Made by a program: the position numbers and the translations under genes. Shown here piece after piece: positions 118 through 34,429 of a stretch of 64,000 nucleotides of DNA. Source of the stretch: Nonomuraea sp. MG754425 (lineage in GTDB: Bacteria; Actinomycetota; Actinomycetes; Streptosporangiales; Streptosporangiaceae); the NCBI RefSeq assembly GCF_021699195.1, contig NZ_SSXE01000022.1, forward strand, positions 1-64,000, written 5' to 3'. The notes beneath the pieces are model-generated. The model was given only the letters and a program-made list of their open reading frames with translations, was not told where the DNA came from and searched no databases. The first letter of the stretch is position 1. Each line of letters opens with the position of its first letter.

Positions 118-711
118 ATGTCCGACGTACTCCCCCTCACGGTCGAAGAGCTGGTCGCCGCCGAGCGGCGCGGTGCGCGTCTGAAATATCTGTACTTCTG
201 GGGTCACCGGCCCACCCGCGACGGCGACGTCGGCAAGGGCTGCCTGAGTCAGTGGTGGCCGGTGACGTTCACCGAGGACGGTCACACGTTCGCCTCGGCC
301 GAGCACTACATGATGGCCCACAAGGCGTGGCTGTTCGGCGACGAGGAGAGCGCGGCCCGGATCCTGCGGGCGGGGCACCCGAGGGACGCCAAGCTGCTGG
401 GCCGGGCCGTGCGCGATTTCGACCACGCGGTGTGGGAGCGGCAGCGTTTCGACATCGTCGTACGCGGCAGCGTGGCCAAGTTCGGCGGCCACCCCGGCCT
501 GGCCGCCTTCCTGCTCGGCACCGGTGAGCGGGTCCTCGTCGAGGCGAGCCCCACCGACCGCGTGTGGGGCATCGGCCTGACCGCCGACGACGACCGCGCC
601 GGCGCGCCCGAGCGGTGGCAGGGCCTGAACCTGCTCGGCTTTGCCCTGATGGCCGCCCGAGCGAGCATGGCCGCCCGCGCGAACCTTCAGGCGGACGGGA
701 ACCTGAGGTAA
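118..711 (+). CDS. NADAR family protein (YbiA/DUF1768-like)
   Basis: A 197-residue protein of the NADAR fold, a family of N-glycosidase-like enzymes acting on ADP-ribose-type or riboflavin-pathway N-glycosides. Visible family blocks: YFWGH (26-30), SQWWP (44-48), the FASAEHYMMAHKA block with the conserved Glu (E62), KLLGR (92-96), and the C-terminal VEASPTDRVWGIG block (141-153). It is full length for the family. The ATG at 118 is used because the aligned N-terminus begins right after it. The last 25 bases overlap the 3' end of the opposing kptA gene, which also handles an ADP-ribose-containing intermediate. Family call is secure; the true substrate is not known from sequence. Confidence 0.88.
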   Translation: MSDVLPLTVEELVAAERRGARLKYLYFWGHRPTRDGDVGKGCLSQWWPVTFTEDGHTFASAEHYMMAHKAWLFGDEESAARILRAGHPRDAKLLGRAVRDFDHAVWERQRFDIVVRGSVAKFGGHPGLAAFLLGTGERVLVEASPTDRVWGIGLTADDDRAGAPERWQGLNLLGFALMAARASMAARANLQADGNLR

Positions 712-20060: not shown

Positions 20061-20474
20061 TCAGCCCGAGACGCGCCTGCGCACCTCGTCGGCCAGCCGG
20101 TCGAGCGAGCGCTCCAGCAGCGCGCGCACCTCGCCGGCCCGGCTGCCCGGCTCGGTCTCGTCGAGCAGGCTCAGGTGCACCGTCACCTCGCTGAGGCCGC
20201 CGGCTGAGTCGGACACCTGCAGCCACCCCGCGTAACCGGGATGGTCGCGCCCGCCCCACTCCACCCGGAGCTGCTCCTCCGAGGCGCGGAACAGCCCCTC
20301 GTGCCGGCCCGCGCCGGGCACCAGCGAGCCGTCGGCCTCGATCGTGCCGGGCCCGCTGCCGTGCACCGACAACCCGCGCGGCAGCCACCGGTCCATGATC
20401 TCGACGTCGGACGCGACCCCGAAGACCACCATGCTCTCCGCCGGCATCCCGCGGGTCGCCTCGAACTCCGCCAT
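20061..20474 (-). CDS. SRPBCC-type (START/Bet v 1-like) protein
   Basis: A 137-residue protein whose layout fits the SRPBCC cavity fold: N-terminal Met-rich helix (residues 1-20), a string of beta strands including LRVEWGGRDHPGYAGWLQV and SEVTVHLSLLDE, and a long C-terminal helix (ALLERSLDRLADEVRRRV). Such proteins bind or act on small hydrophobic ligands. It is divergent from jetA, with 136 bases between, and is not a known Wadjet component. GGGGGA lies just before ATG 20474. Confidence 0.65.
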   Translation of the reverse strand: MAEFEATRGMPAESMVVFGVASDVEIMDRWLPRGLSVHGSGPGTIEADGSLVPGAGRHEGLFRASEEQLRVEWGGRDHPGYAGWLQVSDSAGGLSEVTVHLSLLDETEPGSRAGEVRALLERSLDRLADEVRRRVSG

Positions 20475-20610: not shown

Positions 20611-22161
20611 ATGGCGGAGCCGCCACGGGTGCCGCCGGAGATGTTCCGGTTCACCACCACCGAGCGGGCAGACCTGCACACCGCGGTCCTGTACGCCTTC
20701 GGCGAGGCCAACGAGCGGCTCGAGACCGCCCTGACCGTCGAAGAGGTGCGCGAGCGGCTGCGCACGGTGGGCTGGTACGCGCCGGTCGGCGAGCAGGACC
20801 TGGCCGCGACGCTCAAACAGCTCGCGGGCTGGGGCCTGCTCGACGTGATCTTCAACCACGCCGGCAGCTTCGCCACCGCCGAGGAGTACGAGCGCAAGAA
20901 CCTCCAGTACTCCCTGACCAGGCGCGGCGAGGCCGCCTTCGCCGGCGTGCAGCACGCCATGGGGATGCTGGCCTCGGCCGGCGCGCTGCAGACGGCCGTG
21001 CTCGACGCCATCGCCGACCGGCTGGGCGAGCTGGAGGAGCTGCTGCGCGACCCCGACCCCGGGCGCAACCGGCGGATCTTCACCAGCCTCCAGGAGCTGG
21101 AGGGGCACCTCGACGGCCTGCGCGGCAACACCAAGCAGTTCAACGGCGAGCTGCAGCGGCTGCTCCGGGTCGAAGGCGCCGACCTGGCCACGTTCCACGA
21201 GGTCAAGGCCGCCACGGTGGCCTACCTCCAGGAGTTCGTGACCAACCTGGAGCAGCGCGGCGACACCATCGCCACCGCGCTGCGGGCGCTCGCGCGGCAC
21301 GGCGTCAGCGTGCTGCACGCCCGCGCGCTCGACGGGGCCGACCTGCCGAAGGTGCCCGGAACCGACCACGCCACCGCGTGGCTGGCGGTGCGGGCGGCGC
21401 GCTGGGAGGGGCTGCGCGCCTGGTTCGCCCCGGGAGACGAGCCCGGCGTGCCTCGGGTGCGGCAGCTCCACGACGTGGCGCGGCGGGCCATCGTGTCACT
21501 GCTGCAGGTGCTCGACCGGATCACCGACTCGCGCCGCCGCTCCTCCAGCGCCGCCGCCGACTTCCGCACGCTGGCCCGCTGGTTCGCCACCGCGCCCGGC
21601 GAGGACGACGCGCACCGGCTGTGGGAGGCGGCGTTCGGGCTCGGCCCGGCCAGGCACGCCCACCTCGGGCACGCCGACGCCGAGCTGATCCCGGCCGGGG
21701 TGCCGTGGGCGCAGGCCCAACCGGTCGAGGTGTCGGCCCTGCTGCGCTCACGGGGACGCACGGAACGCATGGGACGCACGGGGAAGGTGCGCGACGTGGC
21801 CGCCGTCCGCGCCGAGCGCCGGGCGCGGGCCGAGAAGGAGCGGGCCGAACTGGAGGCCGCGTGGACGGCCCTGGCCACGACGGGCGCGCTGCGGCTGTCG
21901 CAACTCGGCAAGCTCGACCACGACACGTTCGGCCGGCTGCTCGACCTGCTCGGACGGGCCCTGGCCGAACGGCCCGACTCCACCGGCTTCCGGCGGGCGG
22001 TCACCTCCGACGGCAGGGTGGAGATCGTGCTGCGCGCGCCCGACGACGGTGCCGTGGCGGTGCTGCGCACGTCCGAGGGCTGGTTCCGGGGGCCCGACTA
22101 CCTCATCGACGTGCGCGCCCTGGGCGAGGCGCGGGACCACGGGCGGGCGGCGGGCGCATGA
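20611..22161 (+). CDS. jetA: Wadjet type II component JetA (TIGR02677 family)
   Basis: A 516-residue kleisin-like (MukF-related) subunit of the Wadjet anti-plasmid SMC complex. The N-terminus (residues 1-90) looks like a winged helix; a helical middle follows, including the stretch EGHLDGLRGNTKQFNGELQR, and a charged helix (RAERRARAEKERAELEAAW) precedes the C-terminal wing. The assignment rests on size and on the diagnostic four-gene order TIGR02677-02678-02680-02679. A purine-rich ribosome site (GGGGAGAGGGG) precedes ATG 20611. Its stop overlaps jetB by 4 bases. Confidence 0.88.
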   Translation: MAEPPRVPPEMFRFTTTERADLHTAVLYAFGEANERLETALTVEEVRERLRTVGWYAPVGEQDLAATLKQLAGWGLLDVIFNHAGSFATAEEYERKNLQYSLTRRGEAAFAGVQHAMGMLASAGALQTAVLDAIADRLGELEELLRDPDPGRNRRIFTSLQELEGHLDGLRGNTKQFNGELQRLLRVEGADLATFHEVKAATVAYLQEFVTNLEQRGDTIATALRALARHGVSVLHARALDGADLPKVPGTDHATAWLAVRAARWEGLRAWFAPGDEPGVPRVRQLHDVARRAIVSLLQVLDRITDSRRRSSSAAADFRTLARWFATAPGEDDAHRLWEAAFGLGPARHAHLGHADAELIPAGVPWAQAQPVEVSALLRSRGRTERMGRTGKVRDVAAVRAERRARAEKERAELEAAWTALATTGALRLSQLGKLDHDTFGRLLDLLGRALAERPDSTGFRRAVTSDGRVEIVLRAPDDGAVAVLRTSEGWFRGPDYLIDVRALGEARDHGRAAGA

Positions 22162-23396
22162 GCAGCCTGGCCAACCAGCTCGTCAGGGCCGAGAAGGAGG
22201 AGATCGCGCGGGCCGTCCGGACCTTGCTCGGCCGGCCCCTAGTGTCCCTGCACGACGACCCCGCCGCCTTCGACCTGATCAGGAAGCGGCGGCAACCGCT
22301 GATCCAGTGGTTCGACTACTTCTGCGGCTGGCGGCTGGTCGTGGAGCCACGCCAGGGCTACGCCCGGCTGGTCAAGATCGGCTCGACGCCGGGCGCGACC
22401 CGGCCCGCCCGGCGTCGCCGCACCACCCGCGCGCCGTTCGACCGCCGCCGCTACACGCTGCTGTGCCTGTGCGCGGCCGAACTGCTCACCTCCCCGGTCA
22501 CCACGATCGGGATGCTGGCCCAGCGGGTGGTGCAGGCCGCCGCCGTCGAGCCGGACGTGCCCGCGTTCGACCCGGTCAGGAACGACGAGCGGGCCGCCTT
22601 CGTGGACGCGCTCAGGCTGCTCGAACACTACGGCGCGCTCGTCGCCATGGACGGCGCCACCGACGCCTACCTGGCCGACGAGGACGCCAAGGTGCTCTAC
22701 CGGGTGGACACCACCAGGGTGATCCGGCTGCTGGCCGCCCCCGTGCCACCGTCCAGGGTGGCCGCCGCGCTGCCCGGCCACGACGCCTGGCAGGACACGG
22801 CGGCCGATCCCGACGGCGCGCGGGGCGTGCCGGCGGCGCTGACCACCGAGGCCAGGTACGGCGGCGACGAGCCCACCGAGACCCAGCGCAACCTGTGGGC
22901 CCGCCACTCCCTCATCCGCCGCCTGCTCGACGAGCCCGTCGTCTACCGCGACGAGCTCACCCCCGCCCAGTCCGCCTACGCCGCCTCGCTCACCGGCCGC
23001 CAGATCCTGCGCAGGGCCGCCGAGGAGGCCGGGTTCGTGCTGGAGGAGCGGGCCGAGGGCTTCCTGCTCGTCGATCCCGACGCCATCGCCACCGACGTCA
23101 GGTTCCCCGACGACGGCGGCCACGCCAAGGTGGCCGCCCTGCTCCTGCTCGACCTGCTGGTCACCGCGGGCCCGGTCACCGCCGGCCGGCTCGACGCCGA
23201 GGCCGCCGGGCTGCTGCGGCGCTTCCCGCAGTGGGCCAAGGCGTACCAGTCCGACGGCGGCGGGCCGCGGCTGGCCGCCGACGCGCTGGAGGTGCTCACG
23301 CTGTTCGGGCTGGCCCGCCGCAGCGGTGACCGGATCGCCGCCCTGCCCGCCGCGGCCCGCTACCGCGTCGATCGCGCCGTACAGGAGGATTCGTGA
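22158..23396 (+). CDS. jetB: Wadjet type II component JetB (TIGR02678 family)
   Basis: A 412-residue MukE-like subunit that binds the kleisin JetA. It begins SSLANQLVRAEKEEIARAVR and shows tandem winged-helix character (for example LLTSPVTTIGMLAQRVVQAA; LLLLDLLVTAGPVTAGRLDA). ATG 22158 overlaps the jetA stop; the 3' end overlaps the jetC GTG, with an AGGAGG ribosome site inside jetB. The gene is intact and of normal family length. Confidence 0.88.
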   Translation: MSSLANQLVRAEKEEIARAVRTLLGRPLVSLHDDPAAFDLIRKRRQPLIQWFDYFCGWRLVVEPRQGYARLVKIGSTPGATRPARRRRTTRAPFDRRRYTLLCLCAAELLTSPVTTIGMLAQRVVQAAAVEPDVPAFDPVRNDERAAFVDALRLLEHYGALVAMDGATDAYLADEDAKVLYRVDTTRVIRLLAAPVPPSRVAAALPGHDAWQDTAADPDGARGVPAALTTEARYGGDEPTETQRNLWARHSLIRRLLDEPVVYRDELTPAQSAYAASLTGRQILRRAAEEAGFVLEERAEGFLLVDPDAIATDVRFPDDGGHAKVAALLLLDLLVTAGPVTAGRLDAEAAGLLRRFPQWAKAYQSDGGGPRLAADALEVLTLFGLARRSGDRIAALPAAARYRVDRAVQEDS

Positions 23397-26300
23397 CAGT
23401 CACCGAGCTCGCAGCCCCGCGCGGCGCGCAGGGGGTGGAGGCCCGCTGGATCCCCGTCCGCGCGGGGATCCTGAACGTCTGGCGCTACTACGACGAGGTG
23501 TTCGAGTTCCACCGGGGCCGGCTGCTGCTGCGCGGGCCCAACGGCAGCGGCAAGTCCAAGGTGCTGGAGCTGCTGCTCCCGTACGTGCTCGACGCCAGCC
23601 TCAAGCCGAGCAGGCTGTCCACGTTCGGCGGCACCGAGCGCACCATGCACTGGAACCTCATGGGCGACGGCGCCTCCGGCGCCACCCGGGTCGGCTACGT
23701 GTGGCTGGAGTTCCGGCACGCCGACGGCCGCTGGTTCACCTGCGGCGCCCGGCTGCAGGCCACCGTGCACACCAAGAACGTCACCGCCGCCTACTTCACC
23801 ACCGACGCCCGCGTCGACACCCCCGACGGCGTCCGGCTCACCGGTGACGGCGGGCAGCCGCTGACCAAGGCGCAGCTCGTGGAGGAACTCGGCCCGTCCG
23901 GGACGGTTCACGAGTCGGCCGACTCCTACCGGGCCGTCGTGCGCCAGACGCTCTACCGGGCGTTGAACGAGCAGCGCTACGACTCGCTGCTGACCGCGCT
24001 GCGCCAGCTTCGCACGCCCAAGCTGTCCGAACGGCTCGACCCCGGCCTGCTGTCGGAGCTGCTGTCGAGCGCGCTGCCGCCGCTGGGGGAGGGGGAGATC
24101 CACGAGATCGCGGAGGGGTTCGAGCGGCTCGACCGGCAGCGCGAGGAGCTGCGGCTGCTCGACCGCGACGTGGAGGAGGCCGAGCGGCTCGCCGGCTGCC
24201 AGCGCGGCTACGCCCGGCGCGTGCTGCGGGCCGCCGCCGCGGCGGTGACCTCGGCCGGGTACACGCTGGAGTCGCTGGCCGCCGAGGTCAAGGCCAAGCG
24301 GGAGGCACTGAAGGAGGCCGAGCACGAGCTCGACGCGACCACCGCGCGGCTGGGGGAGGAGGAGGCGCAGGAGCTGGCCCTCGCCGCGCAGATCGACGGG
24401 CTCAAGGAGAGCGGGGCCTACCAGGCGGGCGGCGACCTGCACCGGCTGCGCACCGAGGCGCAGGCCGCGCACGAGGCCGCGGCCCGGCTGCGCGACCAGG
24501 CGGCGGAGTCGGCGCGGGCGGTGACGGCCAAGCAGGAGGTGTCGGCCCACGCCGCCGCCTCAGCCCGTACGGCGGCGGCGCTCGCCGACCGCGCCCGCGC
24601 GGAGGCCCGCCACGCCGCCGAACGCGCCGGCCTGCTCACCGTCCACGAGGAGACGGAACGCGCCGGCCGGCCCGTCCCGCACGACGGGACGGAGGGGCCG
24701 GACAGCGAGGCGGCCGTGCACCGGGCGCGGGAGCTGCTGCGCGCCGCCGTCACCAGCCGCTCCGCCCAGATCAGGGAGGTACGGGCGGGCGCGATCCAGC
24801 ACGAGGAGGCGATCAACCGCCGTACCGCCGCCGAGCACGATCGCGACCGGGCCCGCGACGACCTCGCCACCGCCCAGGAGGCCCACGAGCGGGCCGGCCG
24901 CCTGCGCGACGACCGGGCCCGCGACCTGGCGGCCGGGCTGGCCGACTGGGCGGGCGGCTGCACCCAGCTCCAGCTCGACCCCGGCACCCTCGCCGGGCTG
25001 GCCGACGACTTCGAACAGGCCGACGAACTGGTCGCCACGGCCCGCACGATGGCCGCCGTCGAACTGGCCGCCCGCGAGCAGCACCTCAGCGCCCGGCGCG
25101 AGGGGCTCACCGCCGAGCGGGCCGAGCTGGCGCGCGAGCGCGAGAGCCTCAACGACCGGACCGTGCTGGAGCCGCCCGTCCCGCACACCCGCGGCGCCGC
25201 CGCCAGGGCCGGACGGCCGGGCGTCCCGCTGTGGCGGGCCGTCGCCTTCCGGTCCGGGCTCGACCCCGTCGCCCAGGCCGGGGTGGAGGCGGCGCTCGAG
25301 GCGTCGGGGCTGCTCGACCTGTGGCTGCGGCCCGACGGAGGGTTCGACCCCGGGGAGCACGACGCGTTCGCCGTGGCCGCGCTGTCCAAGCCCGCCCCCG
25401 GCTACAGCCTGGCGCACGTGCTGGTCACCGAGGCCGAGTCCCCGGTGCCCGCCGATCCGGTGCTGGCCGGCATCGCGTTCGCGCCGACCGCGATCGGGGT
25501 CGACCACCCGGCGGTCGTCGGCGCCGACGGCACCTGGCGGCTGGGTCCCGCGGCCGGGCGGTGGGTCAAGCCGGAGCCCTCGTACGTCGGCGCCACCGCC
25601 CGCGAGCGCGCCCGCCGCCGCCGCGTCGCCGAGCTGGACGACCGGCTCGGCGAGCTGGCCGGGCGGATCGCCGAGTGCGACCACCTGCTGGCCGTGGTGG
25701 ACCGCGAGCGCGACACGCTGACCGCCGAGCTGCGGCGCAGGCCCGACCGCAGGCCGTACGCCGAGGCGGTCCAGGCCCACGACGAGGCCGTGCAGCGGGT
25801 GGCGCTGATGGAGGACCAGCTCAGGGCGTACGAGGGGCGGCTGCACGAGCGCGAGCGGGACGTCACCAGGTCGCTGCGTCACCTCACCGAACTGGCCGCC
25901 CGGCACGCCCTGCCCACCGCGCAGCCCGCGCTCGACAACCTGGAGCGGGCGCTGCGCACCGCCGAGACGACCGGCACCGTCTGGCACGACCGCCGCGCCG
26001 ACGCGCGTGCCGCCGCCGAACGCGCCGGCCTGTCGGCCGAGACCGCCGCCGAGTACGAGCAGCTCGCCGTCGAGGCCGTCGAGCGCGCCGAGGAGGCGGC
26101 CGGCGCGGCCGTGGCGCTGGCGGAGCGGCTGGCGGCGATCGAGTCGACGGTCGGCGCCGAGCACCTGCGCGTCCTCGACCGGCTGCAGCACGCCCAGCAC
26201 GCCTACCAGGCGTGCCGCCGCCTGATCAAGTCCGTCAACGACGGCCTGGCGCGGCTCAACGCCCGGCTCGGCCGGCTCAGGGGCGAGCTCGGCACCGCCG

Positions 26301-27442
26301 AGGACAAGCACGCGCAGGCCGGACGGGCGCGCGACGAGGTGTCCGACCGCTTCCGCCGCCTGGCCGCCGGGCACCTGCCGGTGGACGCGAAGGTGCCGCT
26401 CACGCTGGCCCCCGAGTCCGGGGTGCGGGCCGTGCTGGAGGCGGCCAGGGCAGCGGCCGAGCAGCTCGCGTCGGTGCCGTACGAGCACAAGAACGTCAGG
26501 GAGGCCGAGGCGCGGCTGCAGGACGCCTTCCACCACGCCAGGGAGGTGCTGGCCGACCGGGCCGACCTGGAGCTGGCGCCGGACGACGACGTGCAGGTGC
26601 TCACCGCCACCGTCAACGGCGTGCGGGCGGGCGCGGCGGCGCTCAGCGAGGCGCTGCGCAAGGAGCGCGACGAGCGGCGCTCCGACATCACCGAGGCCGA
26701 ACGCGACCTGTTCGACCGCACCCTGGCCGGCGACACGCGGCGGCACCTGGCCGACCGCATCAGGCAGGCGACGGCCCTGGTGGAGGGCATGAACCAGCGC
26801 CTCGAACGGGTCCGCACGGCCTCCCGGGTGGCGGTGCGGCTGGTGTGGCAGGTCGATCCCACCCAGTCGGCCGGCACCCGCGCCGCCCGCGACCTGCTGC
26901 TGCGCGACCCCGCCGGGCTGTCGGAGGCCGACAAGGAGGCGCTGTACGTCTTCTTCCGGGACCGTGTGGAGGAGGCCAGGGCCGACAACTCCTCGGCGAG
27001 CTGGGAGGACCAGCTCATGAAGGTGCTCGACTACACGGCCTGGCACCGGTTCGTGGTCAAGCTCGACCGGGGCGACGGGCACGGCTGGCAGGACCTGACC
27101 AGGAAGCTGCACGGGGCGCTGTCGGGCGGGGAGAAGGCGATCGCGCTGCACCTGCCGCTGTTCGCCGCCGTGGCGGCGCACTACCGGACCGATCCGGGGT
27201 GCCCGCGCTTCATCCTGCTCGACGAGGTGTTCGTGGGGGTGGACCGGACGAACCGAGGGCAGGTGTTCGACCTGCTGGTCGATCTGGGGCTGGACCTGGT
27301 GCTGACGTCCGACCACGAGTGGTGCGAGTACCGCGAGCTGGACGGGATCGCGATCCACCAGCTCATCACCGGGGACGGCGACGACGCGGTGACCACGGCC
27401 CGCTTCGTGTGGAACGGCTACCGGACGGTGCCCACCGAATGA
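23393..27442 (+). CDS. jetC: Wadjet type II component JetC, SMC/MukB-like ATPase (TIGR02680 family)
   Basis: A 1349-residue SMC-like motor. The N-terminal head has Walker A GPNGSGKS (48-55); long charged coiled-coil arms surround a hinge-like region around residues 590-720; the C-terminal head has the signature LSGGEK (about 1243-1248) and Walker B FILLDEVF (about 1273-1280). Length and motifs match the TIGR02680 family. In studied Wadjet systems JetABC extrudes DNA loops to sense small circular DNA. GTG 23393 follows AGGAGG by 5 bases and is in a GTGA overlap with jetB. All ATPase motifs look active. Confidence 0.93.
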   Translation: MTVTELAAPRGAQGVEARWIPVRAGILNVWRYYDEVFEFHRGRLLLRGPNGSGKSKVLELLLPYVLDASLKPSRLSTFGGTERTMHWNLMGDGASGATRVGYVWLEFRHADGRWFTCGARLQATVHTKNVTAAYFTTDARVDTPDGVRLTGDGGQPLTKAQLVEELGPSGTVHESADSYRAVVRQTLYRALNEQRYDSLLTALRQLRTPKLSERLDPGLLSELLSSALPPLGEGEIHEIAEGFERLDRQREELRLLDRDVEEAERLAGCQRGYARRVLRAAAAAVTSAGYTLESLAAEVKAKREALKEAEHELDATTARLGEEEAQELALAAQIDGLKESGAYQAGGDLHRLRTEAQAAHEAAARLRDQAAESARAVTAKQEVSAHAAASARTAAALADRARAEARHAAERAGLLTVHEETERAGRPVPHDGTEGPDSEAAVHRARELLRAAVTSRSAQIREVRAGAIQHEEAINRRTAAEHDRDRARDDLATAQEAHERAGRLRDDRARDLAAGLADWAGGCTQLQLDPGTLAGLADDFEQADELVATARTMAAVELAAREQHLSARREGLTAERAELARERESLNDRTVLEPPVPHTRGAAARAGRPGVPLWRAVAFRSGLDPVAQAGVEAALEASGLLDLWLRPDGGFDPGEHDAFAVAALSKPAPGYSLAHVLVTEAESPVPADPVLAGIAFAPTAIGVDHPAVVGADGTWRLGPAAGRWVKPEPSYVGATARERARRRRVAELDDRLGELAGRIAECDHLLAVVDRERDTLTAELRRRPDRRPYAEAVQAHDEAVQRVALMEDQLRAYEGRLHERERDVTRSLRHLTELAARHALPTAQPALDNLERALRTAETTGTVWHDRRADARAAAERAGLSAETAAEYEQLAVEAVERAEEAAGAAVALAERLAAIESTVGAEHLRVLDRLQHAQHAYQACRRLIKSVNDGLARLNARLGRLRGELGTAEDKHAQAGRARDEVSDRFRRLAAGHLPVDAKVPLTLAPESGVRAVLEAARAAAEQLASVPYEHKNVREAEARLQDAFHHAREVLADRADLELAPDDDVQVLTATVNGVRAGAAALSEALRKERDERRSDITEAERDLFDRTLAGDTRRHLADRIRQATALVEGMNQRLERVRTASRVAVRLVWQVDPTQSAGTRAARDLLLRDPAGLSEADKEALYVFFRDRVEEARADNSSASWEDQLMKVLDYTAWHRFVVKLDRGDGHGWQDLTRKLHGALSGGEKAIALHLPLFAAVAAHYRTDPGCPRFILLDEVFVGVDRTNRGQVFDLLVDLGLDLVLTSDHEWCEYRELDGIAIHQLITGDGDDAVTTARFVWNGYRTVPTE

Positions 27443-28674
27443 CCGGCGGCGACCACGACCACGCCCCGGCCGCGCCGACGCCGGGGCCGCCGCGGACCGG
27501 GGCTCCGGCGCGGGTGCCGGAGCGGTTGTGGGCGGCGGAGCTGCGGCCGGTGTGGGCGGCGGTGCACGCGCGGTGCTGCTCAGGCCGGCCGGTCAGCCGG
27601 GTCAGGGTGCGCGGGCTGGCGCAGGCGCAGCAGGCCGCCGTGGCCGACCTGCTCGGCCTCGACCGCTACCCGGGCCCGGCCGTCACGATCGAGGTGGCCC
27701 GGCTCGACGCCGCGCTGGGCGGCGGCCTGGACGCGCGCACCGTCGCCGAGGCGGTGATCGGCCCGATCGACGACCGGGGGCGCAGGCGGGCCGAGCGCAG
27801 CCGGGACCGGGACGCGCTGCTCGGCTGGTTCGCCGCCCACCCGGTGGTCACGGCCCAGCCGGCGCTGCTGACGCTGTCCGCCGCGCGTGCCGGTCGCGAC
27901 CTCATGGAGCGGGCGCTCGGCGTGCTGGCCGCGCTGCCCGCCTCGGGTCGGCCGCTGCCGGAGGTGGCCGCCCGCCTGACCGGCGACCCGCACGCCCTCG
28001 ACGACGGCACGCGGCTGTCGTCCCTGGTGCTCAAGGCCCTGTCCCTGCTGTACGACGTGCCGCCGCCCGAGGACGCCGAGGCGCGGCGCGCGTTGTGGGC
28101 GCGGGCGGGCGTGGCCTGTGACGCGCTGTCCACCACGGTGCTGGTCGCCGGGTTACGTCCCGCCGGGGACGGCATCCTGGCCAGGGTGTTGCGGGCCTGG
28201 GACGGCGAGCCGAGCGTGATCACCCTGGCCCAGCTCCGGGACGTGCGCGCGCTGGAGCCGGCGGAGCGGACCGTGTGGGTGGTGGAGAACCCGACGGTGC
28301 TGGCGCTGGCCAGGCGGCGGTTCGGCACGACGCAGGGCCCGCCGATGGTGTGCACCTCGGGCTGGCCCAACAGCGCCGCCGTCCGCCTGCTGCGCGCGCT
28401 CGCCGCGGCCGGGGCGGAGCTGCGCTGCCACGGCGACTTCGACGGGGCGGGGCTGCGGATCGCCGCGTACACGATGGCCAAGACCGGCGCGTTGCCGTGG
28501 CGCATGTCGAGCGCCGACTACCTGGGGGCGCTGGCGGACCGCCCGCCGCCCGGCCCGGCCCTCGGGCCGGTGAGCGACGCGCCCTGGGACGCGGGGCTGG
28601 CTCCCGCGATGCGCGCCCACGGGGTGGCGGTGCCGGAGGAGCTCGTGGCGGAACGGCTGTTCGACGACCTGTGA
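27439..28674 (+). CDS. jetD: Wadjet type II component JetD, TOPRIM nuclease (TIGR02679 family)
   Basis: A 411-residue nuclease subunit. The N-terminal half carries the family-specific helical domain; the C-terminal third is a TOPRIM domain with the metal-binding Glu283 (VVENPTVL) and the Asp pair 333/335 (CHGDFDGAGLRIA). In Wadjet, JetD cuts plasmid DNA held by JetABC. ATG 27439 overlaps the jetC stop. It ends the operon; the following 160 bases are an AT-richer promoter region for the rha operon, with no clear terminator hairpin. Confidence 0.9.
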   Translation: MTGGDHDHAPAAPTPGPPRTGAPARVPERLWAAELRPVWAAVHARCCSGRPVSRVRVRGLAQAQQAAVADLLGLDRYPGPAVTIEVARLDAALGGGLDARTVAEAVIGPIDDRGRRRAERSRDRDALLGWFAAHPVVTAQPALLTLSAARAGRDLMERALGVLAALPASGRPLPEVAARLTGDPHALDDGTRLSSLVLKALSLLYDVPPPEDAEARRALWARAGVACDALSTTVLVAGLRPAGDGILARVLRAWDGEPSVITLAQLRDVRALEPAERTVWVVENPTVLALARRRFGTTQGPPMVCTSGWPNSAAVRLLRALAAAGAELRCHGDFDGAGLRIAAYTMAKTGALPWRMSSADYLGALADRPPPGPALGPVSDAPWDAGLAPAMRAHGVAVPEELVAERLFDDL

Positions 28675-28837: not shown

Positions 28838-30343
28838 ATGCGTGAATCACCTCCCATCCTTTCACTACGCAACGTCAGCAAGTCTTTCGGCGCCGTCCAC
28901 GCACTCACGGACGTGCGGCTGGACCTGCGGGCCGGTGAGGTCCACGGGCTGGTCGGCGAGAACGGCGCCGGCAAGTCGACCTTGGTGAAGATCCTCGCCG
29001 GCGCCCACCCGGCGGACGCGGGCACGTTGACCGTCGACGGGAAGGAGCTGAGGCCGTCCGGCCCCGCGGACGCCCGCGCCGCCGGCATCGCGGTCATCTA
29101 CCAGGAGCCGACGCTTTTCCCCGACCTGTCCGTGGCCGAGAACATCTTCATGAGCCGCCAGCCCCTGCGCTCGCTGCGCCGCATCGACGCCGGGGCCATG
29201 CGCGCGGCCACGGCCGGCCTGTTCGCCCGGCTCGGCATCCACCTCGACCCCGGACGTCCCGCGCGCGGGCTGTCCATCGCCGACCAGCAACTCGTGGAGA
29301 TCGCGAAGGCGCTGGCGTTCGACGCGCGGGTACTGATCATGGACGAGCCGACCGCGGCGCTGTCGGGGGTCGAGGTCGAGCGACTGTTCTCGGTGGTGGC
29401 CTCGCTGCGCGAGTCGGGCGCGGCCGTGCTGTTCATCTCCCACCGGTTCGACGAGATCTTCGCGCTGTGCCGGCGGGTCACCGTCATGCGGGACGGCCGC
29501 TGGGTCTCCACCGACCCCGCCGCCGGGCTCACGGTGGACGACCTCGTCCGCCGCATGGTCGGCCGCGAGGTGTCCTCCCTGTATCCCAAGACCGAGACGG
29601 CTCCCGGCGAACCCCTGCTGGAGGTCCGCGGGCTGACCCGGCACGGCGTGTTCGACGACGTCTCCTTCACGGTGCGCGGCGGCGAGATCGTCGCCCTGGC
29701 GGGGCTGGTCGGGGCCGGGCGGAGCGAGGTGGCCCGCGCGGTGTTCGGCGTCGACCGCTACGACGCGGGCGAGGTCCTGGCCGGCGGCGGCCGGCTGCCC
29801 AAGGGGGACACGGCCGCGGCCATCGCCGCCGGGCTGGCCCTCGTCCCGGAGGACCGCCGCCAGCAGGGCCTGGTGATGGAGCTGTCGGTGGAGCGCAACG
29901 CCACCCTCACCCGGCGCTGGTCGCTGAGCAGGCTCGGACTGCTGCTCGGCGGCGGCGAACGGGCGGCGGCCCGCGAGTGGAGCGAGCGGCTGCGGGTCAA
30001 GGCCGCCCGGCTGAGCGACCCCGTCGCCACGTTGTCCGGCGGCAACCAGCAGAAGGTCGTCCTGGCCAAGTGGCTCTCGACCGGGCCGAAGGTGCTCATC
30101 GTGGACGAGCCCACGCGCGGCATCGACGTGGGCACCAAGGCCGAGGTGCACCGGCTGCTGTCGGAGCTGGCCGGGCAGGGCGTCGCGGTGCTGATGATCT
30201 CCAGCGAGCTGCCCGAGGTGCTCGGCATGGCCGATCGGGTGCTGGTGATGCACGAGGGCCGGCTGGTCGCCGACCTCCCGCGCACGCGCGCCGACGAGCA
30301 GTCGGTGCTGCTCGCCGCCACCGGCCAGGGCGGTGCCGGATGA
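28838..30343 (+). CDS. rhaT: Rhamnose-type sugar ABC transporter, ATP-binding protein
   Basis: A 501-residue duplicated ABC ATPase of the RbsA/RhaT carbohydrate-uptake (CUT2) type. The first cassette has Walker [11 protein letters not shown]-loop YQEPTLFP, signature LSIADQQ and Walker B LIMDEPT; the second has the degenerate P-loop GLVGAGRSE, signature LSGGNQQK and Walker [12 protein letters not shown], as is normal for CUT2. It powers uptake with the two permeases and binding protein that follow. Strong ribosome site GGAGGG before ATG 28838. The rhamnose assignment comes from the binding protein (rhaS) of the same operon. Confidence 0.85.
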
Positions 30344-31365
30344 CGGCGGCCGGCGTGCTCGGCGGGGAGCGGGAGGGCGCCCGCCTGGTCCAGCGCGTCC
30401 TGGTGGTCAGGGAGCTGGGCATCGTCCTGGCGCTGGTGCTGCTCGTCGGGGTGACGGTGCTGGTCAACCCGCGCTTCCTGACCGCCCAGGGCGTCAAGGA
30501 CCTGCTGCTCGGCTCGACCATCCTGGCCGTGCTCGCGGTCGGCCAGAGCGTCGTGGTCATCACCCGCAACGTGGACCTGTCGGTGGGCTCGGTGCTCGGC
30601 CTGTCGGCGTTCGCGACGGGCAGCCTGCTCGTGGCCAACCCCGGCCTGCCCGTCCCGGTCGCGCTCGCGGCCGGCGTGCTGCTCGGCGCCGTCTGCGGGG
30701 CGGTGAACGGCGCGCTGATCGCCGCCGCCCGCGTCCCCGCCCTCGTCGTCACCCTCGGCACCCTGTACGTCTTCCGCGGCCTCGACTACACCTGGGCCAC
30801 GGGCCGGCAGATCAACGCCGCCGACATGCCGCCCGGGTTCCTGCGGATGGGCGGCGCGACCGTGGCGGGCGTGCCCGTGCTCGCGCTGTTCGCCGTGGTG
30901 GTGCTGGTCGCCGCCGGCTACTACCTGCGCTCCTACCGCAGCGGGCGTGAACTGTACGCGATCGGCTCCAGTCCCGCCGCCGCCCGCCTGGCCGGCATCC
31001 CCGTCGGCCGGCGGGTGTTCGCCGCGTTCGTCGCCAGCGGCGCGCTGGCGGGCCTGGCCGGCGTCCTGTACGCGGCCCGCTTCGGCACCCTCGACGCCAA
31101 CGCCGGCAACGGCTTCGAGCTGAACGTGGTGGCGGCCGTCGTGGTCGGCGGCGTGGCGATCTTCGGCGGCAGCGGCTCGGTGTACGGTGCCGCGCTCGGC
31201 GCGGTGCTGCTCACCACGATCAGCAGCGCGCTGCCGGTGCTCGGGGTCAGCCCGTTCTGGCAGCGGGCCGCCGTCGGCGCGCTCATCCTGGCCGCGATCG
31301 GCCTCGACCGGGCGCTGTCGGCGCGGCTGGCCCGCTCACTGAGAGGAAGGAAGGGCCATGGCTGA
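30340..31365 (+). CDS. rhaP: Rhamnose-type sugar ABC transporter permease 1
   Basis: A 341-residue CUT2 permease with about ten hydrophobic segments. It carries the family blocks [17 protein letters not shown] (about 80-96) and [20 protein letters not shown] 30340 overlaps the rhaT stop. It pairs with the next gene as a heterodimeric membrane channel. Confidence 0.85.
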
Positions 31366-32371
31366 GCGGATCTCGCGCCTGCGCTCGCTCGTCGGCTCCT
31401 GGGACGCCGCCCTGCTCGTGGCCCTGGTCCTGGTCGTCGCGGTCGGCGCGGTCACCGTCGAGGGCGTGGCCAGCCCGCGCTTCTGGCGGTTCGTCACGCT
31501 GGAGGTCATCCCGATCGCGCTCATCGCGCTGCCCATGACGCTGGTCATCGTCACCGGCGAGATCGACCTGTCGGTGGCCAGCGTCCTCGGCCTGACCTGC
31601 ACGGTCATGGGGCAGCTCTGGCTGTGGGGCGTCACGTCGCTGCCCGTGCTCGTCGTCGCCGGGCTGCTGCTGGGCGCCCTGCTCGGCGCGGTCAACGGAC
31701 TGTTCGTGACCGTGTTCGGGCTGCCGTCGCTGGCCGTCACGATCGGCACGCTCGCCCTCTACCGCGGGCTGGCGTACGTCGTGCTGGGCGACCGCGCGGT
31801 GGCCGACTACCCGCCGCAGTGGACGGCGGGCGCGATCGGCGCGATCCCCGGCCTGACCATCCCCTGGGCGATCATCGTGGTCGTGGTGCTCGCCGTGGCG
31901 TTCGGGATCGTCCTGCACGCCACCCCGATCGGCCGCGGCCTGTACGCCATGGGCAACAACGCCGAGGCCGCCCGCTTCGCCGGGATCTCCGTCGTCCGGA
32001 CGAAGTTCTGGCTGTTCGTCGCCACCGGGGCCATGTCGGCGCTGGCCGGCGTCTTCTGGACGCTGCGCTACGCCAGCGCCCGCGCCGACAACGGCAGCGG
32101 ACTCGAACTCGCGGTGGTGGCCGCCGTGCTGCTGGGCGGCGTGTCCATCTTCGGCGGCCGGGGCGGCCTGATCGGCGTCATCGCCGCGGTCGTGCTGCTC
32201 GGCACGCTGCGCAACGCCCTGCAACTGGCCTACGTCCCGGCCAACACCCTCACCATCATCACCGGATCCCTGCTCATCGTCTCCGTCGTGGGACCCAACG
32301 TCGCCGGCCTGCTCCGCGAGCGGCTACGTCGCCGGCGACCCGCCGCCACCCCCGTCACCCAGGCCGAGTGA
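31358..32371 (+). CDS. rhaQ: Rhamnose-type sugar ABC transporter permease 2
   Basis: A 337-residue CUT2 permease with VTGEIDLSVASVLGLTC and YAMGNNAEAARFAGISV blocks and multiple hydrophobic segments. ATG 31358 lies within the last codons of rhaP (8-base overlap), with an AGGAAGG ribosome site upstream. Having two different permeases and one binding protein is the RhaSTPQ arrangement. Confidence 0.85.
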   Translation: MAERISRLRSLVGSWDAALLVALVLVVAVGAVTVEGVASPRFWRFVTLEVIPIALIALPMTLVIVTGEIDLSVASVLGLTCTVMGQLWLWGVTSLPVLVVAGLLLGALLGAVNGLFVTVFGLPSLAVTIGTLALYRGLAYVVLGDRAVADYPPQWTAGAIGAIPGLTIPWAIIVVVVLAVAFGIVLHATPIGRGLYAMGNNAEAARFAGISVVRTKFWLFVATGAMSALAGVFWTLRYASARADNGSGLELAVVAAVLLGGVSIFGGRGGLIGVIAAVVLLGTLRNALQLAYVPANTLTIITGSLLIVSVVGPNVAGLLRERLRRRRPAATPVTQAE

Positions 32372-32399
32372 TCAGCCGCAGGGCACGAAAGGACACATC

Positions 32400-33461
32400 A
32401 TGGGAGCCAGAAACCGGGTCATCGTTCTCGCGGCGCTCGCCGCGCTCAGCCTCGCCGTCACCGGTTGCGCGAGCCAGGAGCCGGCCGCCACCGAGCCCGC
32501 CCCCGCAGGCTCAGGAGGCGCGGCGGCGACGATCAAGGAAGGGCTGAAGGTCGCCTTCCTCCCCAAGCAGGTCAACAACCCGTACTTCGACGCTTCCGAC
32601 AACAAGGGCGGCAAGGTCGCGGTCGAGGAGTTCAAGGGCGTCTACAGCCAGACCGGCCCGTCGGAGGCCAGCCCGTCGGCGCAGGTCAGCTACATCAACA
32701 CGCTGTCGCAGCAGGGCACCGACGTGATCGTGGTCTCGGCCAACGACAAGGACGCCATCTGCGGGGCGCTCCAGGAGGCCCGCACCGCCGGAGCCAAGAT
32801 CGTCACCTACGACTCCGACACGAACCCGGCCTGCCGCGACGCCTTCATCAACCAGGCCAGCCCCGAGGGCATCGCGGCCTCCCAGATCAAGCTCATCTCC
32901 GAGGCCGTCGGCCCGGACGGCGGCGAGATCGCGATCCTGTCGGCGACGGCGAACGCGACGAACCAGAACGCCTGGATCGAGATGATGAAGACCGAGCTGG
33001 CCAAGCCGGAGAACGCCAAGCTGAAGCTGGTCACCACCGTCTACGGCGACGACGACGACCAGAAGTCCTTCCAGGAGACCCAGGGCCTGATGGCGAAGTA
33101 CCCGAACCTGAAGGGCGTCATCTCGCCCACCACGGTCGGCGTCGCCGCCGCGGCCCGCTACCTGTCCACCTCGGAGTACAAGGGCAAGGTGCAGCTCACC
33201 GGCCTCGGCACGCCGAACCAGATGCGCGAGTACGTCAAGGACGGCACGGTCAGGTCGTTCGCCCTGTGGAACCCGTCCGACCTCGGCTACCTGGCCGCCT
33301 ACACCGGTGGCGCGCTGGCCTCCGGGATGATCAGCGGCAAGGAGGGCGACACGTTCACCGCCGGCAAGCTCGGCGAGTACACCGTCGGCAAGGACGGCGC
33401 GGTGCTGCTCGGCGACCCGTTCGTGTTCACCAAGGACAACGTGGACGACTTCGACTTCTGA
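32400..33461 (+). CDS. rhaS: Rhamnose-type sugar-binding lipoprotein
   Basis: A 353-residue solute-binding protein. A lipoprotein signal ends in the lipobox LAVTGC (Cys about 22). The mature part follows the RhaS/LsrB pattern: FLPKQVNNPYFDAS, VVSANDKDAI, TYDSDTN, ATANATNQNAWIEMM, VYGDDDDQKSF, SPTTVGVAAAA, GLGTPNQMREYV and FALWNPSDLGY. These match the rhamnose-binding RhaS group better than the AI-2 receptor LsrB as I recall them. AAAGGA precedes ATG 32400. No rhamnose catabolic genes are near, so the ligand remains an inference. Confidence 0.83.
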   Translation: MGARNRVIVLAALAALSLAVTGCASQEPAATEPAPAGSGGAAATIKEGLKVAFLPKQVNNPYFDASDNKGGKVAVEEFKGVYSQTGPSEASPSAQVSYINTLSQQGTDVIVVSANDKDAICGALQEARTAGAKIVTYDSDTNPACRDAFINQASPEGIAASQIKLISEAVGPDGGEIAILSATANATNQNAWIEMMKTELAKPENAKLKLVTTVYGDDDDQKSFQETQGLMAKYPNLKGVISPTTVGVAAAARYLSTSEYKGKVQLTGLGTPNQMREYVKDGTVRSFALWNPSDLGYLAAYTGGALASGMISGKEGDTFTAGKLGEYTVGKDGAVLLGDPFVFTKDNVDDFDF

Positions 33462-33490: not shown

Positions 33491-34429
33491 TCAGACCTGG
33501 TGCGCCCAGGGCGGGTCCGCGCCCCTGACCGAGCAGGTACGCGCCGCCACCCTGGCCGCGTACCCGGCCGCCGTCACCACCGTGTCCAGGTCGAGCCCGT
33601 CGAGCCGGCCGCCGAGCAGGCCCGCGGCCTCCAGGCCGTGCAGCAGCCCGGCGGTGAACGCGTCGCCCGCGCCCACCGTGTCCACGACCGGCACGCGGGG
33701 CGCGGCGATCGTGGCCCGCTCGCCGTCCAGCGACACCAGCGCGCCCGCCGCGCCCAGCGTGACGACGACGAGCCGGGCGCCCGCGGCGTGCCAGACGTCG
33801 CAGGCCCGCTCCGGCGGCACGCCGGGCAGCAGGAAGGCGAGGTCGTCGTCGCTGAGCCTGAGGATGTCGGCGAACTCGCACCACCGCTCCACCTGGTAGT
33901 CGTGCCGCGCGGCCAGGCTGGGGCGCACGTTGGGGTCGATCGAGACCGTGGCCCGCGCCGCCGCCGCCCTGGCGAACTCCTCCACCGCCGACCGTCCCGG
34001 CTGCCTGACCAGCGCGAGCGAGCCGGTGTGCAGGCAGGAGGCGGGGCCCAGCCGGTCGGGGGTCAGCTCGCCGGGGGTCCAGCGCCAGTCGGCCGTGCCC
34101 GTGGCGTAGAAGGTGTACTCGGCCCGGCCGCGCTCGTCGAGGGCGGCGACCGCGAGCGTGCTCGGCTCGCCGGCCCGCACGCAGGCGCTCAGGTCCACCC
34201 CCGACGAGGACAGGTGGTGGCGGAACATCGTGCCGAAGACGTCGTGCGACAGGCGGCCGAGGAAGCGGGCCGGCGTGCCCAGCCGGGCCAGCGCCACCGC
34301 CGTGTTGGCGGGGCCGCCGCCGGGATGCGCCCGCAGCTCCATGGCGGTGCCGGCGGCCGTGCGCCCCGTCGCGGGGGGCTCCCAGCGGGTGAAGGCGTCG
34401 GCGACGCACTCGCCCAGGACAGCGATCAT
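33491..34429 (-). CDS. PfkB-family sugar kinase (fructokinase-like)
   Basis: A 312-residue ribokinase-fold kinase. N-terminal motif AHPGGGPANTAVALARLG (about 35-52) and the C-terminal catalytic motif DTVGAGDAFTAGLLHG with the base Asp are intact. Divergent from frcB across a 163-base spacer holding two abutting operators, which suggests the two units respond to the same regulator. With a fructose-type importer next door it is most likely a fructokinase, as frcK is in rhizobial frcBCAK clusters. GAGAGG lies upstream of ATG 34429. Confidence 0.85.
   Translation of the reverse strand: MIAVLGECVADAFTRWEPPATGRTAAGTAMELRAHPGGGPANTAVALARLGTPARFLGRLSHDVFGTMFRHHLSSSGVDLSACVRAGEPSTLAVAALDERGRAEYTFYATGTADWRWTPGELTPDRLGPASCLHTGSLALVRQPGRSAVEEFARAAAARATVSIDPNVRPSLAARHDYQVERWCEFADILRLSDDDLAFLLPGVPPERACDVWHAAGARLVVVTLGAAGALVSLDGERATIAAPRVPVVDTVGAGDAFTAGLLHGLEAAGLLGGRLDGLDLDTVVTAAGYAARVAARTCSVRGADPPWAHQV

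What the first reader, a model, noticed from the sequence alone, without database searches (positions are those of the whole stretch)
20611..28674. Complete type II Wadjet (jetABCD) anti-plasmid system
Four genes in the diagnostic order TIGR02677, TIGR02678, TIGR02680, TIGR02679, each overlapping the next by 4 bases. The SMC ATPase motifs (GPNGSGKS, LSGGEK, FILLDE) and the TOPRIM residues (Glu283, Asp333, Asp335) are intact, so it looks functional. It is not in an obvious defence island: neighbours are an SRPBCC protein and sugar transport genes, and no mobile element is nearby.
Basis: partly seen in the sequence, partly recalled or inferred. Interest (0 to 1): 0.7.

Follow-up and report, generated by a model that had tools for sequence, protein, structure and literature searches.

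The report
Intact Wadjet operon; sisters lost nuclease
This is a complete, ordinary bacterial anti-plasmid system (type II Wadjet) in the soil bacterium Nonomuraea, but in many sister species with the same operon the DNA-cutting subunit has been cleanly deleted while the motor subunits were kept, which offers a natural experiment on what the motor does without its blade.

Summary
jetA, jetB, jetC and jetD (20611-28674, +) match TIGR02677, 02678, 02680 and 02679 well above cut-off and PADLOC's JetA2/B2/C2/D2 models. Each gene overlaps the next by 4 bp. The ATPase motifs are intact, and Glu283, Asp333 and Asp335 of JetD are invariant in 39 aligned JetDs. It is an intact type II Wadjet, a member of a known kind.

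An orthologous operon is found in 30 of 54 Nonomuraea genomes; all 30 share at least one flank. jetD is present in 11 and absent in 19. The best JetABC tree needs 5 changes within the genus (4 forced by well-supported branches), and a single jetD-less clade is rejected. In the clade nearest the window, sequence that follows jetD elsewhere follows jetC directly. jetABC stays under purifying selection with its core ATPase motifs unchanged. Only the kleisin JetA is clearly relaxed, which fits its published role as docking subunit of the nuclease in a type I system. Ten of the 19 genomes have no detectable JetD anywhere.

Nuclease-less Wadjet-group complexes (MukBEF) are known. The use here is seeing the change several times at one locus. 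A nuclease-independent role is inferred, not shown.

The parts
20611..22161 (+). jetA (DUF2397, kleisin), 516 aa
   Evidence: TIGR02677 482 bits; PADLOC JetA2 814.6 bits; PF09660
22158..23396 (+). jetB (DUF2398, KITE subunit), 412 aa
   Evidence: TIGR02678 327.1 bits; PADLOC JetB2 412.2 bits
23393..27442 (+). jetC (SMC ATPase), 1349 aa, GTG start
   Evidence: TIGR02680 1077.8 bits; PADLOC JetC2 1290.8 bits; matches JetC of PDB 9qe0, E 1e-78 over residues 15-288 in the best stretch
23534..23557 (+). Walker A GPNGSGKS of JetC
   Evidence: sequence; identical in 30 of 30 Nonomuraea orthologues
27119..27136 (+). ABC signature LSGGEK of JetC
   Evidence: sequence; identical in 30 of 30
27209..27226 (+). 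Walker B FILLDE of JetC
   Evidence: sequence; identical in 30 of 30
27439..28674 (+). jetD (TOPRIM nuclease: DUF3323 + DUF2399), 411 aa
   Evidence: TIGR02679 289.3 bits; PADLOC JetD2 392 bits; PF09664 and PF11796
28285..28287 (+). JetD Glu283 codon (TOPRIM glutamate, in the invariant motif ENP)
   Evidence: invariant in 39 of 39 rows
28435..28443 (+). JetD Asp333-x-Asp335 codons (TOPRIM DxD)
   Evidence: both Asp invariant in 39 of 39 rows
20061..20474 (-). SRPBCC gene, upstream flank of the site (context, not part of the system)
   Evidence: PF10604; orthologue in the fetched flank of 26 of 30 operons
28838..33461 (+). sugar ABC cassette downstream (context); also present downstream in 6 other orthologous loci: G007, G010, G018, G028, G037, G049
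   Evidence: ABC_tran, BPD_transp_2, RhaS over cut-off, synteny

Best explanation
The window holds an intact type II Wadjet operon in a Nonomuraea. JetA (kleisin), JetB (KITE) and JetC (SMC ATPase) should form the loop-extruding motor that senses small circular DNA, and JetD (CAP + TOPRIM) the nuclease that linearises it; this mechanism comes from published type I systems and is not shown here. The operon sits at a fixed chromosomal site next to an SRPBCC gene and has largely been inherited vertically within the genus. From the ancestral jetABCD, jetD alone has been lost several times, leaving jetABC intact, co-translationally coupled and under purifying selection. I infer that JetABC does something useful without JetD (for example DNA or chromosome organisation, as in MukBEF and MksBEF). 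I also infer that the relaxed constraint on the kleisin after the loss marks JetA, mostly its first ~325 residues, as serving JetD docking and/or the motor geometry that JetD needs. The window is the nuclease-bearing form. Shown: gene identities, residues, site, distribution of jetD, tree, dN/dS. Inferred: activity, direction (loss rather than gain), nuclease-independent role.
For: Identity. Distribution: 30 orthologous loci, jetD in 11, absent in 19. By contrast another Wadjet lineage in the same genus has jetD adjacent in 13 of 13 (by coordinates), and in the wider family 47 of 47 JetC places at or above 990 bits have it, with this locus's own rows left out. Tree: 5 changes on the best tree, 4 forced by starred branches, 4-6 in bootstraps; one jetD-less clade rejected by AU, p 5.9e-64, and p 3e-4 with G050 and G014 left out of the group. 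With 9 more outgroup loci chosen without regard to jetD, including two that lack it, the count is 7, of which 5 lie in Nonomuraea. Precise junction: sequence after the jetD stop in the window and G007 is recognisably what follows the jetC stop in G037, G049, G018, G028, G010. Ten of the 19 jetD-less genomes have no TIGR02679 and no DUF2399 match (0 of 10; positive controls 2 of 2). Selection: branch-disjoint pairs, 7 jetD-less and 8 jetD-bearing: median dN/dS JetC 0.29 v 0.31 (p 0.87), JetB 0.30 v 0.25 (p 0.09), JetA 0.28 v 0.16 (p 0.002). JetA/JetC distance ratio to outgroups 0.66-1.30 in 18 jetD-less v 0.62-0.67 in 10 jetD-bearing. Core ATPase motifs unchanged in 19 of 19. Published: the kleisin MksF is the subunit that binds the nuclease MksG in C. 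glutamicum (PMC10123090 section 29).
Against: No activity or expression was tested. Two non-Nonomuraea relatives with full downstream sequence, L071 and L073, and a broken MAG operon, L078, also lack JetD, and one jetD-less clade is basal in Nonomuraea in the wider tree, so polarity rests on the majority of outgroups and on the shared overlap. Nine of the 19 jetD-less genomes carry a JetD-like protein elsewhere, mostly with another Wadjet. Five of the 19 operons are cut by contig ends and G010 has a broken JetA frame near its C-terminus. The pairs for dN/dS were chosen after a first look, and the JetA 1-325 and JetC 1026-1200 segments were chosen. Recombination between species could spread one deletion and lower the number of events.
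Confidence: 0.82

Rival explanations
1. jetD-less operons are relics: once the nuclease is gone the motor has no job and is merely decaying slowly.
For: JetA dN/dS roughly doubles; one of 19 (G010) has a disrupted JetA frame; the divergent clade G012/G026/G052/G047/G013 evolves faster.
Against: JetC and JetB dN/dS are not significantly raised; core ATPase motifs are identical in 19 of 19; 13 of 19 operons are complete with open frames, 5 are open as far as their contigs reach and 1 is disrupted; G047/G026 pair still 0.40 for JetC at dS about 0.5.
Confidence: 0.15
2. JetD is supplied in trans by another Wadjet in the same genome, so the jetD-less operon is still a working defence system.
For: 9 of the 19 jetD-less genomes have a TIGR02679 match elsewhere, most beside another JetC.
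Against: 10 of 19 have none by TIGR02679 and none by DUF2399, among them assemblies of 1 to 4 contigs (G002, G018, G049). JetDs of the other main lineage are about 33-39% identical to the window's.
Confidence: 0.06
3. jetD was gained several times by a three-gene jetABC ancestor rather than lost.
For: Counts of changes do not give direction; a jetD-less clade is basal within Nonomuraea in one tree.
Against: 17 of 23 non-Nonomuraea loci have JetD, and 3 of the 6 without are cut by the contig end. In 5 of 7 outgroup operons examined jetC and jetD share the same 4-bp overlap as in the 11 Nonomuraea. Repeated gain in exact register is unlikely.
Confidence: 0.06
4. One deletion allele spread by recombination through conserved flanks, so there was only one or two loss events.
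For: Flanks are conserved and collinear in most species, which would allow it.
Against: JetABC sequences themselves place jetD-less rows in separate, well supported places. Downstream neighbours and jetC-to-neighbour spacers differ: sugar ABC cassette, a minus-strand kinase from 0 to about 100 bp away, or other genes.
Confidence: 0.12

Closest known systems
Wadjet type II (JetABCD; TIGR02677-TIGR02680 / PADLOC JetA2-D2)
   Same: All four subunits, order, overlaps, ATPase motifs and TOPRIM acidic residues.
   Different: Nothing in the window departs from it. In 19 of 30 sister species the orthologous operon lacks jetD.
EptABCD of Mycobacterium smegmatis (the original plasmid-restriction locus; seen in PMC10586767 passages; its assignment to type II is recalled)
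   Same: JetABCD gene set in an actinobacterium.
   Different: Not compared by sequence here; different genus and locus.
MksBEFG of Corynebacterium glutamicum (type I; PMC10123090 passages and section 29)
   Same: Kleisin, KITE, SMC, TOPRIM nuclease; kleisin is the nuclease-binding subunit, in line with kleisin-specific relaxation here.
   Different: Type I; the TIGR02680 control search matched C. glutamicum only below the cut-off.
MukBEF and other nuclease-less Wadjet-group complexes (PMC7617805 passages and section 52; PMC10586767 section 7)
   Same: JetABC-like motor without JetD, as in the 19 jetD-less sister operons.
   Different: The window itself has JetD. The sister operons are recent losses at one orthologous locus rather than an old family.
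JetABC in PDB entries 9qe0/9qe1
   Same: phmmer matches to JetC (E 1e-78), JetA (1e-17) and weakly JetB (0.028).
   Different: No solved JetD is reached by sequence or profile; the entry's paper was not seen.

Membership tests
Wadjet type II | JetA = TIGR02677/DUF2397 kleisin | tested here: met
   482 bits v cut-off 165.85; JetA2
Wadjet type II | JetB = TIGR02678/DUF2398 | tested here: met
   327.1 v 124.65; JetB2
Wadjet type II | JetC = TIGR02680 SMC ATPase with Walker A, signature, Walker B | tested here: met
   1077.8 v 462.85; motifs
Wadjet type II | JetD = TIGR02679 with TOPRIM Glu and DxD | tested here: met
   289.3 v 196; E283, D333, D335 invariant in 39 rows
Wadjet type II | Four genes in one operon in the order A-B-C-D | tested here: met
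   4-bp overlaps, one strand
Wadjet type II | Restriction of small circular plasmids | not testable with these tools
   needs transformation assay
Wadjet type II | JetD fold (CAP + TOPRIM dimer) | not tested
   structure prediction failed and was then switched off; no PDB relative by profile
MksBEF / nuclease-less Wadjet group | No JetD/MksG in the operon | tested here: not met
   window has jetD; met in 19 of 30 orthologous operons of sister species

The most novel reading that the evidence does not exclude
Nonomuraea catches a plasmid-defence machine in the act of turning, several times over, into a nuclease-free housekeeping SMC complex: JetD is dropped precisely, the motor and ATPase are kept, and the N-terminal half of the kleisin, which serves JetD, is freed to drift. 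A separate lineage in the same family has gone all the way: no JetD, a kleisin reduced to its C-terminal half, and a JetC with SQGEQ and Walker B DD instead of SGGEK and DE, conserved across many genera. If so, the JetD-coupling part of a type II Wadjet is the N-terminal half of JetA, and this predicts a working SMC complex with a half kleisin.
Probability: 0.35. Interest if true: 0.75.

Novelty: new member of a known kind. Interest (0 to 1): 0.48.

Why it matters
The operon itself adds one more intact type II Wadjet, a type that a 2023 review says has had less study than type I (PMC10586767 section 7). The genus-wide pattern matters more. How nuclease-free MukBEF-like complexes relate to Wadjet is discussed as unresolved in that same section. 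Here closely related species differ by presence or absence of jetD at one locus, so the effect of losing the nuclease on plasmid carriage, chromosome folding and subunit evolution can be compared directly. The kleisin-specific relaxation gives a testable map of where JetD couples to the motor in type II systems.

Tried and rejected
PDB search with JetD alone and with a 39-row profile found nothing credible. jetD remnants downstream of jetC in jetD-less operons: only weak scattered tblastn matches on both strands (listed E down to about 4e-4, composition correction off, output cut at 3000 characters), judged noise in GC-rich DNA. JetC on phage records: no match. JetC on plasmid records: 11 records with a match; the only one covering at least 80% of JetC is an 11.85-Mb Nonomuraea gerenzanensis record filed as a plasmid. 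Promoter/terminator consensus scan: nothing at the operon start, one weak site downstream of jetD. Literature: no paper on Wadjet in Nonomuraea was found in searches; one paper holds both words (PMC11719660, listing only, not opened). Considered and rejected: that the jetD-less state is an assembly artefact (three of the genomes have 1 to 4 contigs).

Rows dropped before counts: G046 (near copy of G045) and five divergent jetD-less genomes (G012, G013, G026, G047, G052); G050 has no JetA on its contig and is missing from JetA counts (18 of 19); family-level bands use pasted JetC places at or above 700 bits without the rows of this locus (G000, G025 C439, G031, G021, G027), and a JetD list trimmed to relevant contigs. 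The first outgroup (7 loci) was picked from loci that have jetD; this was repaired, in which two jetD-less relatives are included.
Full report
What is there. The window comes from a Nonomuraea-like genome (named relatives at 79-90% JetC identity are nearly all Nonomuraea; window = G000:C125, 11.3 Mb in 641 contigs). Four ORFs on the + strand, 20611-22161, 22158-23396, 23393-27442 and 27439-28674, each overlap the next by 4 bp. They score 482, 327.1, 1077.8 and 289.3 bits against TIGR02677, TIGR02678, TIGR02680 and TIGR02679, all above the curated cut-offs. PADLOC's best models are JetA2, JetB2, JetC2 and JetD2. Pfam gives DUF2397, DUF2398, SbcC_Walker_B and DUF2399 + DUF3323. Walker A, ABC signature and Walker B of JetC are intact by sequence. 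In an alignment of 39 JetDs (window, Nonomuraea, other actinobacteria and the second Nonomuraea lineage) E283, N284, P285, D333 and D335 are invariant.

Where it sits. The operon lies between an SRPBCC gene (20061-20474, minus) and a sugar ABC cassette (28838-33461) whose binding protein is over the RhaS cut-off. Beyond the cassette is a minus-strand PfkB-like kinase gene (name by recalled resemblance) that ends at 33491; a small plus-strand ORF that I had called there is its shadow. Among 54 Nonomuraea genomes 40 have some TIGR02680 match. In 30 I found an operon orthologous to the window's, with at least one of the same flanks: the SRPBCC gene lies in the fetched flank of 26 of the 30. Of ten genomes without this operon whose SRPBCC orthologue was fetched, four (G022, G029, G034, G036) have it 229-302 bp from the kinase region, with no jet gene between; their other side differs from the window's, and the remaining six are rearranged or run off the contig. 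No phage record carries the JetC; 11 plasmid records do, and only one covers at least 80% of it, an 11.85-Mb record that looks like a chromosome.

jetD comes and goes. In the 30 orthologous operons jetD is present in 11 (G000, G006, G007, G024, G025, G031, G040, G043, G045, G046, G053), always overlapping jetC by 4 bp, and absent in 19. In the 19, jetC ends normally and is followed by unrelated flank. Thirteen of the 19 operons are complete with open frames, five are cut by contig ends but open as far as they go, and in G010 the JetA frame is broken near its end. For five of them (G010, G018, G028, G037, G049) the sequence after the jetC stop is recognisably the sequence that follows the jetD stop in the window and in G007, closely so in G037 and G049: the nuclease gene is missing from stop to stop. 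Ten of the 19 genomes have no TIGR02679 match at all and none of those ten has a DUF2399 match, while both positive controls do. The other nine have a JetD-like protein elsewhere, mostly with another Wadjet. By comparison, a second Wadjet lineage in the genus has jetD next to jetC in 13 of 13 places, and in 200 genomes of the family 47 of 47 JetC places at or above 990 bits, rows of this locus left out, have a jetD within 2.5 kb.

How often. On a JetABC tree of 37 rows the absence of jetD needs 5 changes; well supported branches force 4, and bootstraps give 4-6. Holding the 19 jetD-less rows together is rejected (p-AU 5.9e-64), also with G050 and G014 taken out (p 3e-4, a group named after seeing the tree). 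G050 is nested among jetD-bearing species and G014 is sister to jetD-bearing G025. My first outgroup had been chosen from loci with jetD. An unselected check of 23 non-Nonomuraea loci found JetD in 17; of the six without, three are cut by the contig end and three (L071, L073, and the broken L078) truly lack it in the fetched stretch. With nine more outgroup loci, including L071 and L073, the tree needs 7 changes, 5 of them in Nonomuraea, and one jetD-less clade becomes basal in the genus. Loss rather than gain is thus an inference from most outgroups and from the shared overlap. Recombination could reduce the number of events.

What happens to the rest. Walker A, signature, Walker B and neighbouring head motifs are identical or nearly so in 19 of 19 jetD-less JetCs. 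In branch-disjoint pairs (7 jetD-less, 8 jetD-bearing, of which 3 Actinomadura) the median dN/dS is 0.29 v 0.31 for JetC (p 0.87), 0.30 v 0.25 for JetB (p 0.09) and 0.28 v 0.16 for JetA (p 0.002); against the five Nonomuraea pairs alone JetA gives p 0.0025. The ratio of JetA to JetC dN/dS separates the groups (p 6e-4). The JetA/JetC distance ratio to outgroups is 0.66-1.30 in 18 jetD-less and 0.62-0.67 in 10 jetD-bearing rows. In a subset matched for divergence (10 v 14 genomes) diversity is raised about twofold in JetA 1-325 and JetC 1026-1200 but not in the JetC N-terminal head or residues 601-760; these segments were picked after the fact. In C. glutamicum the kleisin MksF, not the SMC or KITE subunit, binds the nuclease MksG (PMC10123090 section 29), and Wadjet motors are joined through the kleisin (PMC10586767 section 7; PMC10512200 passages). 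A kleisin that relaxes when the nuclease goes fits both.

Most likely mechanism. For the window: JetABC loads on DNA and extrudes loops; on a small circle the two motors meet themselves and JetD cuts (PMC10586767 passages; inferred for this operon). For the jetD-less sisters: a motor without a blade, kept by selection for a role I cannot show. That nuclease-less members of the Wadjet group exist is known: MukBEF and several others lack MksG/JetD (PMC7617805 passages). So the category is not new. What is useful is repeated, recent change at one orthologous locus.

A lead beyond the locus. In the family-wide search 18 of 19 JetC places at 795-870 bits had no jetD within 2.5 kb. I fetched those 18 and one at 982 bits. 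Local profiles found no JetD in any of the 19 stretches of about 11 kb. JetA was seen only as its C-terminal part in 14, not at all in 3, and full length in 2 (G111, G112). Pfam DUF2397 confirms a match confined to about positions 288-482 in open frames of 234-264 aa (346 in G092) in 10 of 10 genomes searched. The JetCs of the 17 have Walker A GRNG[AT]GKS but SQGEQ for SGGEK and LLDD for LLDE; G112 shares the last two. A published survey kept only MksF proteins of 400-1200 aa (PMC7617805 section 52) and would have left such operons out. A separately encoded N-terminal half too diverged to see is not excluded: conserved upstream ORFs exist in several of these loci, and those scanned had no Pfam kleisin match.

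Verdict. The finding is real and correctly named. As a system it is a new member of a known kind. Its interest lies in the genus comparison: intact, nuclease-bearing Wadjet here, nuclease-free orthologue in 19 sister species.

Noticed in passing
L126-L144 (19 loci of the same family; 17 of them): A JetD-less JetABC lineage whose kleisin is only the C-terminal half of JetA (about 220-264 aa, 346 in G092, undetected by the local profile in 3) and whose JetC carries SQGEQ and Walker B LLDD instead of SGGEK and LLDE, conserved across genera.
   Followed up: partly
L002 / L124 (G000:C126, about 17.9-19.9 kb): A second, decayed Wadjet in the window's own genome: a jetC fragment from the 3' end with a broken frame, beside a jetD paralogue about 36% identical that is still open and keeps ENP and DFD.
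   Followed up: partly
L125 (G000:C240:5510-5893): A further JetD C-terminal fragment on a small contig that also holds an ORF resembling an IS transposase by eye.
   Followed up: no
window 27439-28674: JetD of the window and its relative G007 evolves fast: pair dN/dS 0.59 against 0.19-0.44 in the other four Nonomuraea pairs, tips about 2.2-2.5 times those of JetC. It may be relaxing ahead of loss.
   Followed up: partly
window 28838-33461: The sugar ABC cassette lies between the jet operon and the kinase gene in 7 of the 30 loci (G000, G007 and five jetD-less species), which marks a clade and suggests that jetD went after the cassette arrived there.
   Followed up: partly
window 30897-30985: ARAGORN calls a tRNA-Arg(CCT) inside the ABC permease ORF 30340-31365; probably a false call.
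   Followed up: no
window 118-711: NADAR-type protein: riboflavin biosynthesis intermediates N-glycosidase over cut-off; also matches a PADLOC candidate model.
   Followed up: no
L057, L075: In Lentzea and a Nocardia-labelled record jetD lies upstream of jetA (order D-A-B-C), not downstream of jetC.
   Followed up: no
record NZ_LT559118.1: An 11.85-Mb Nonomuraea gerenzanensis record is filed among plasmids in the collection; by size it is a chromosome.
   Followed up: no
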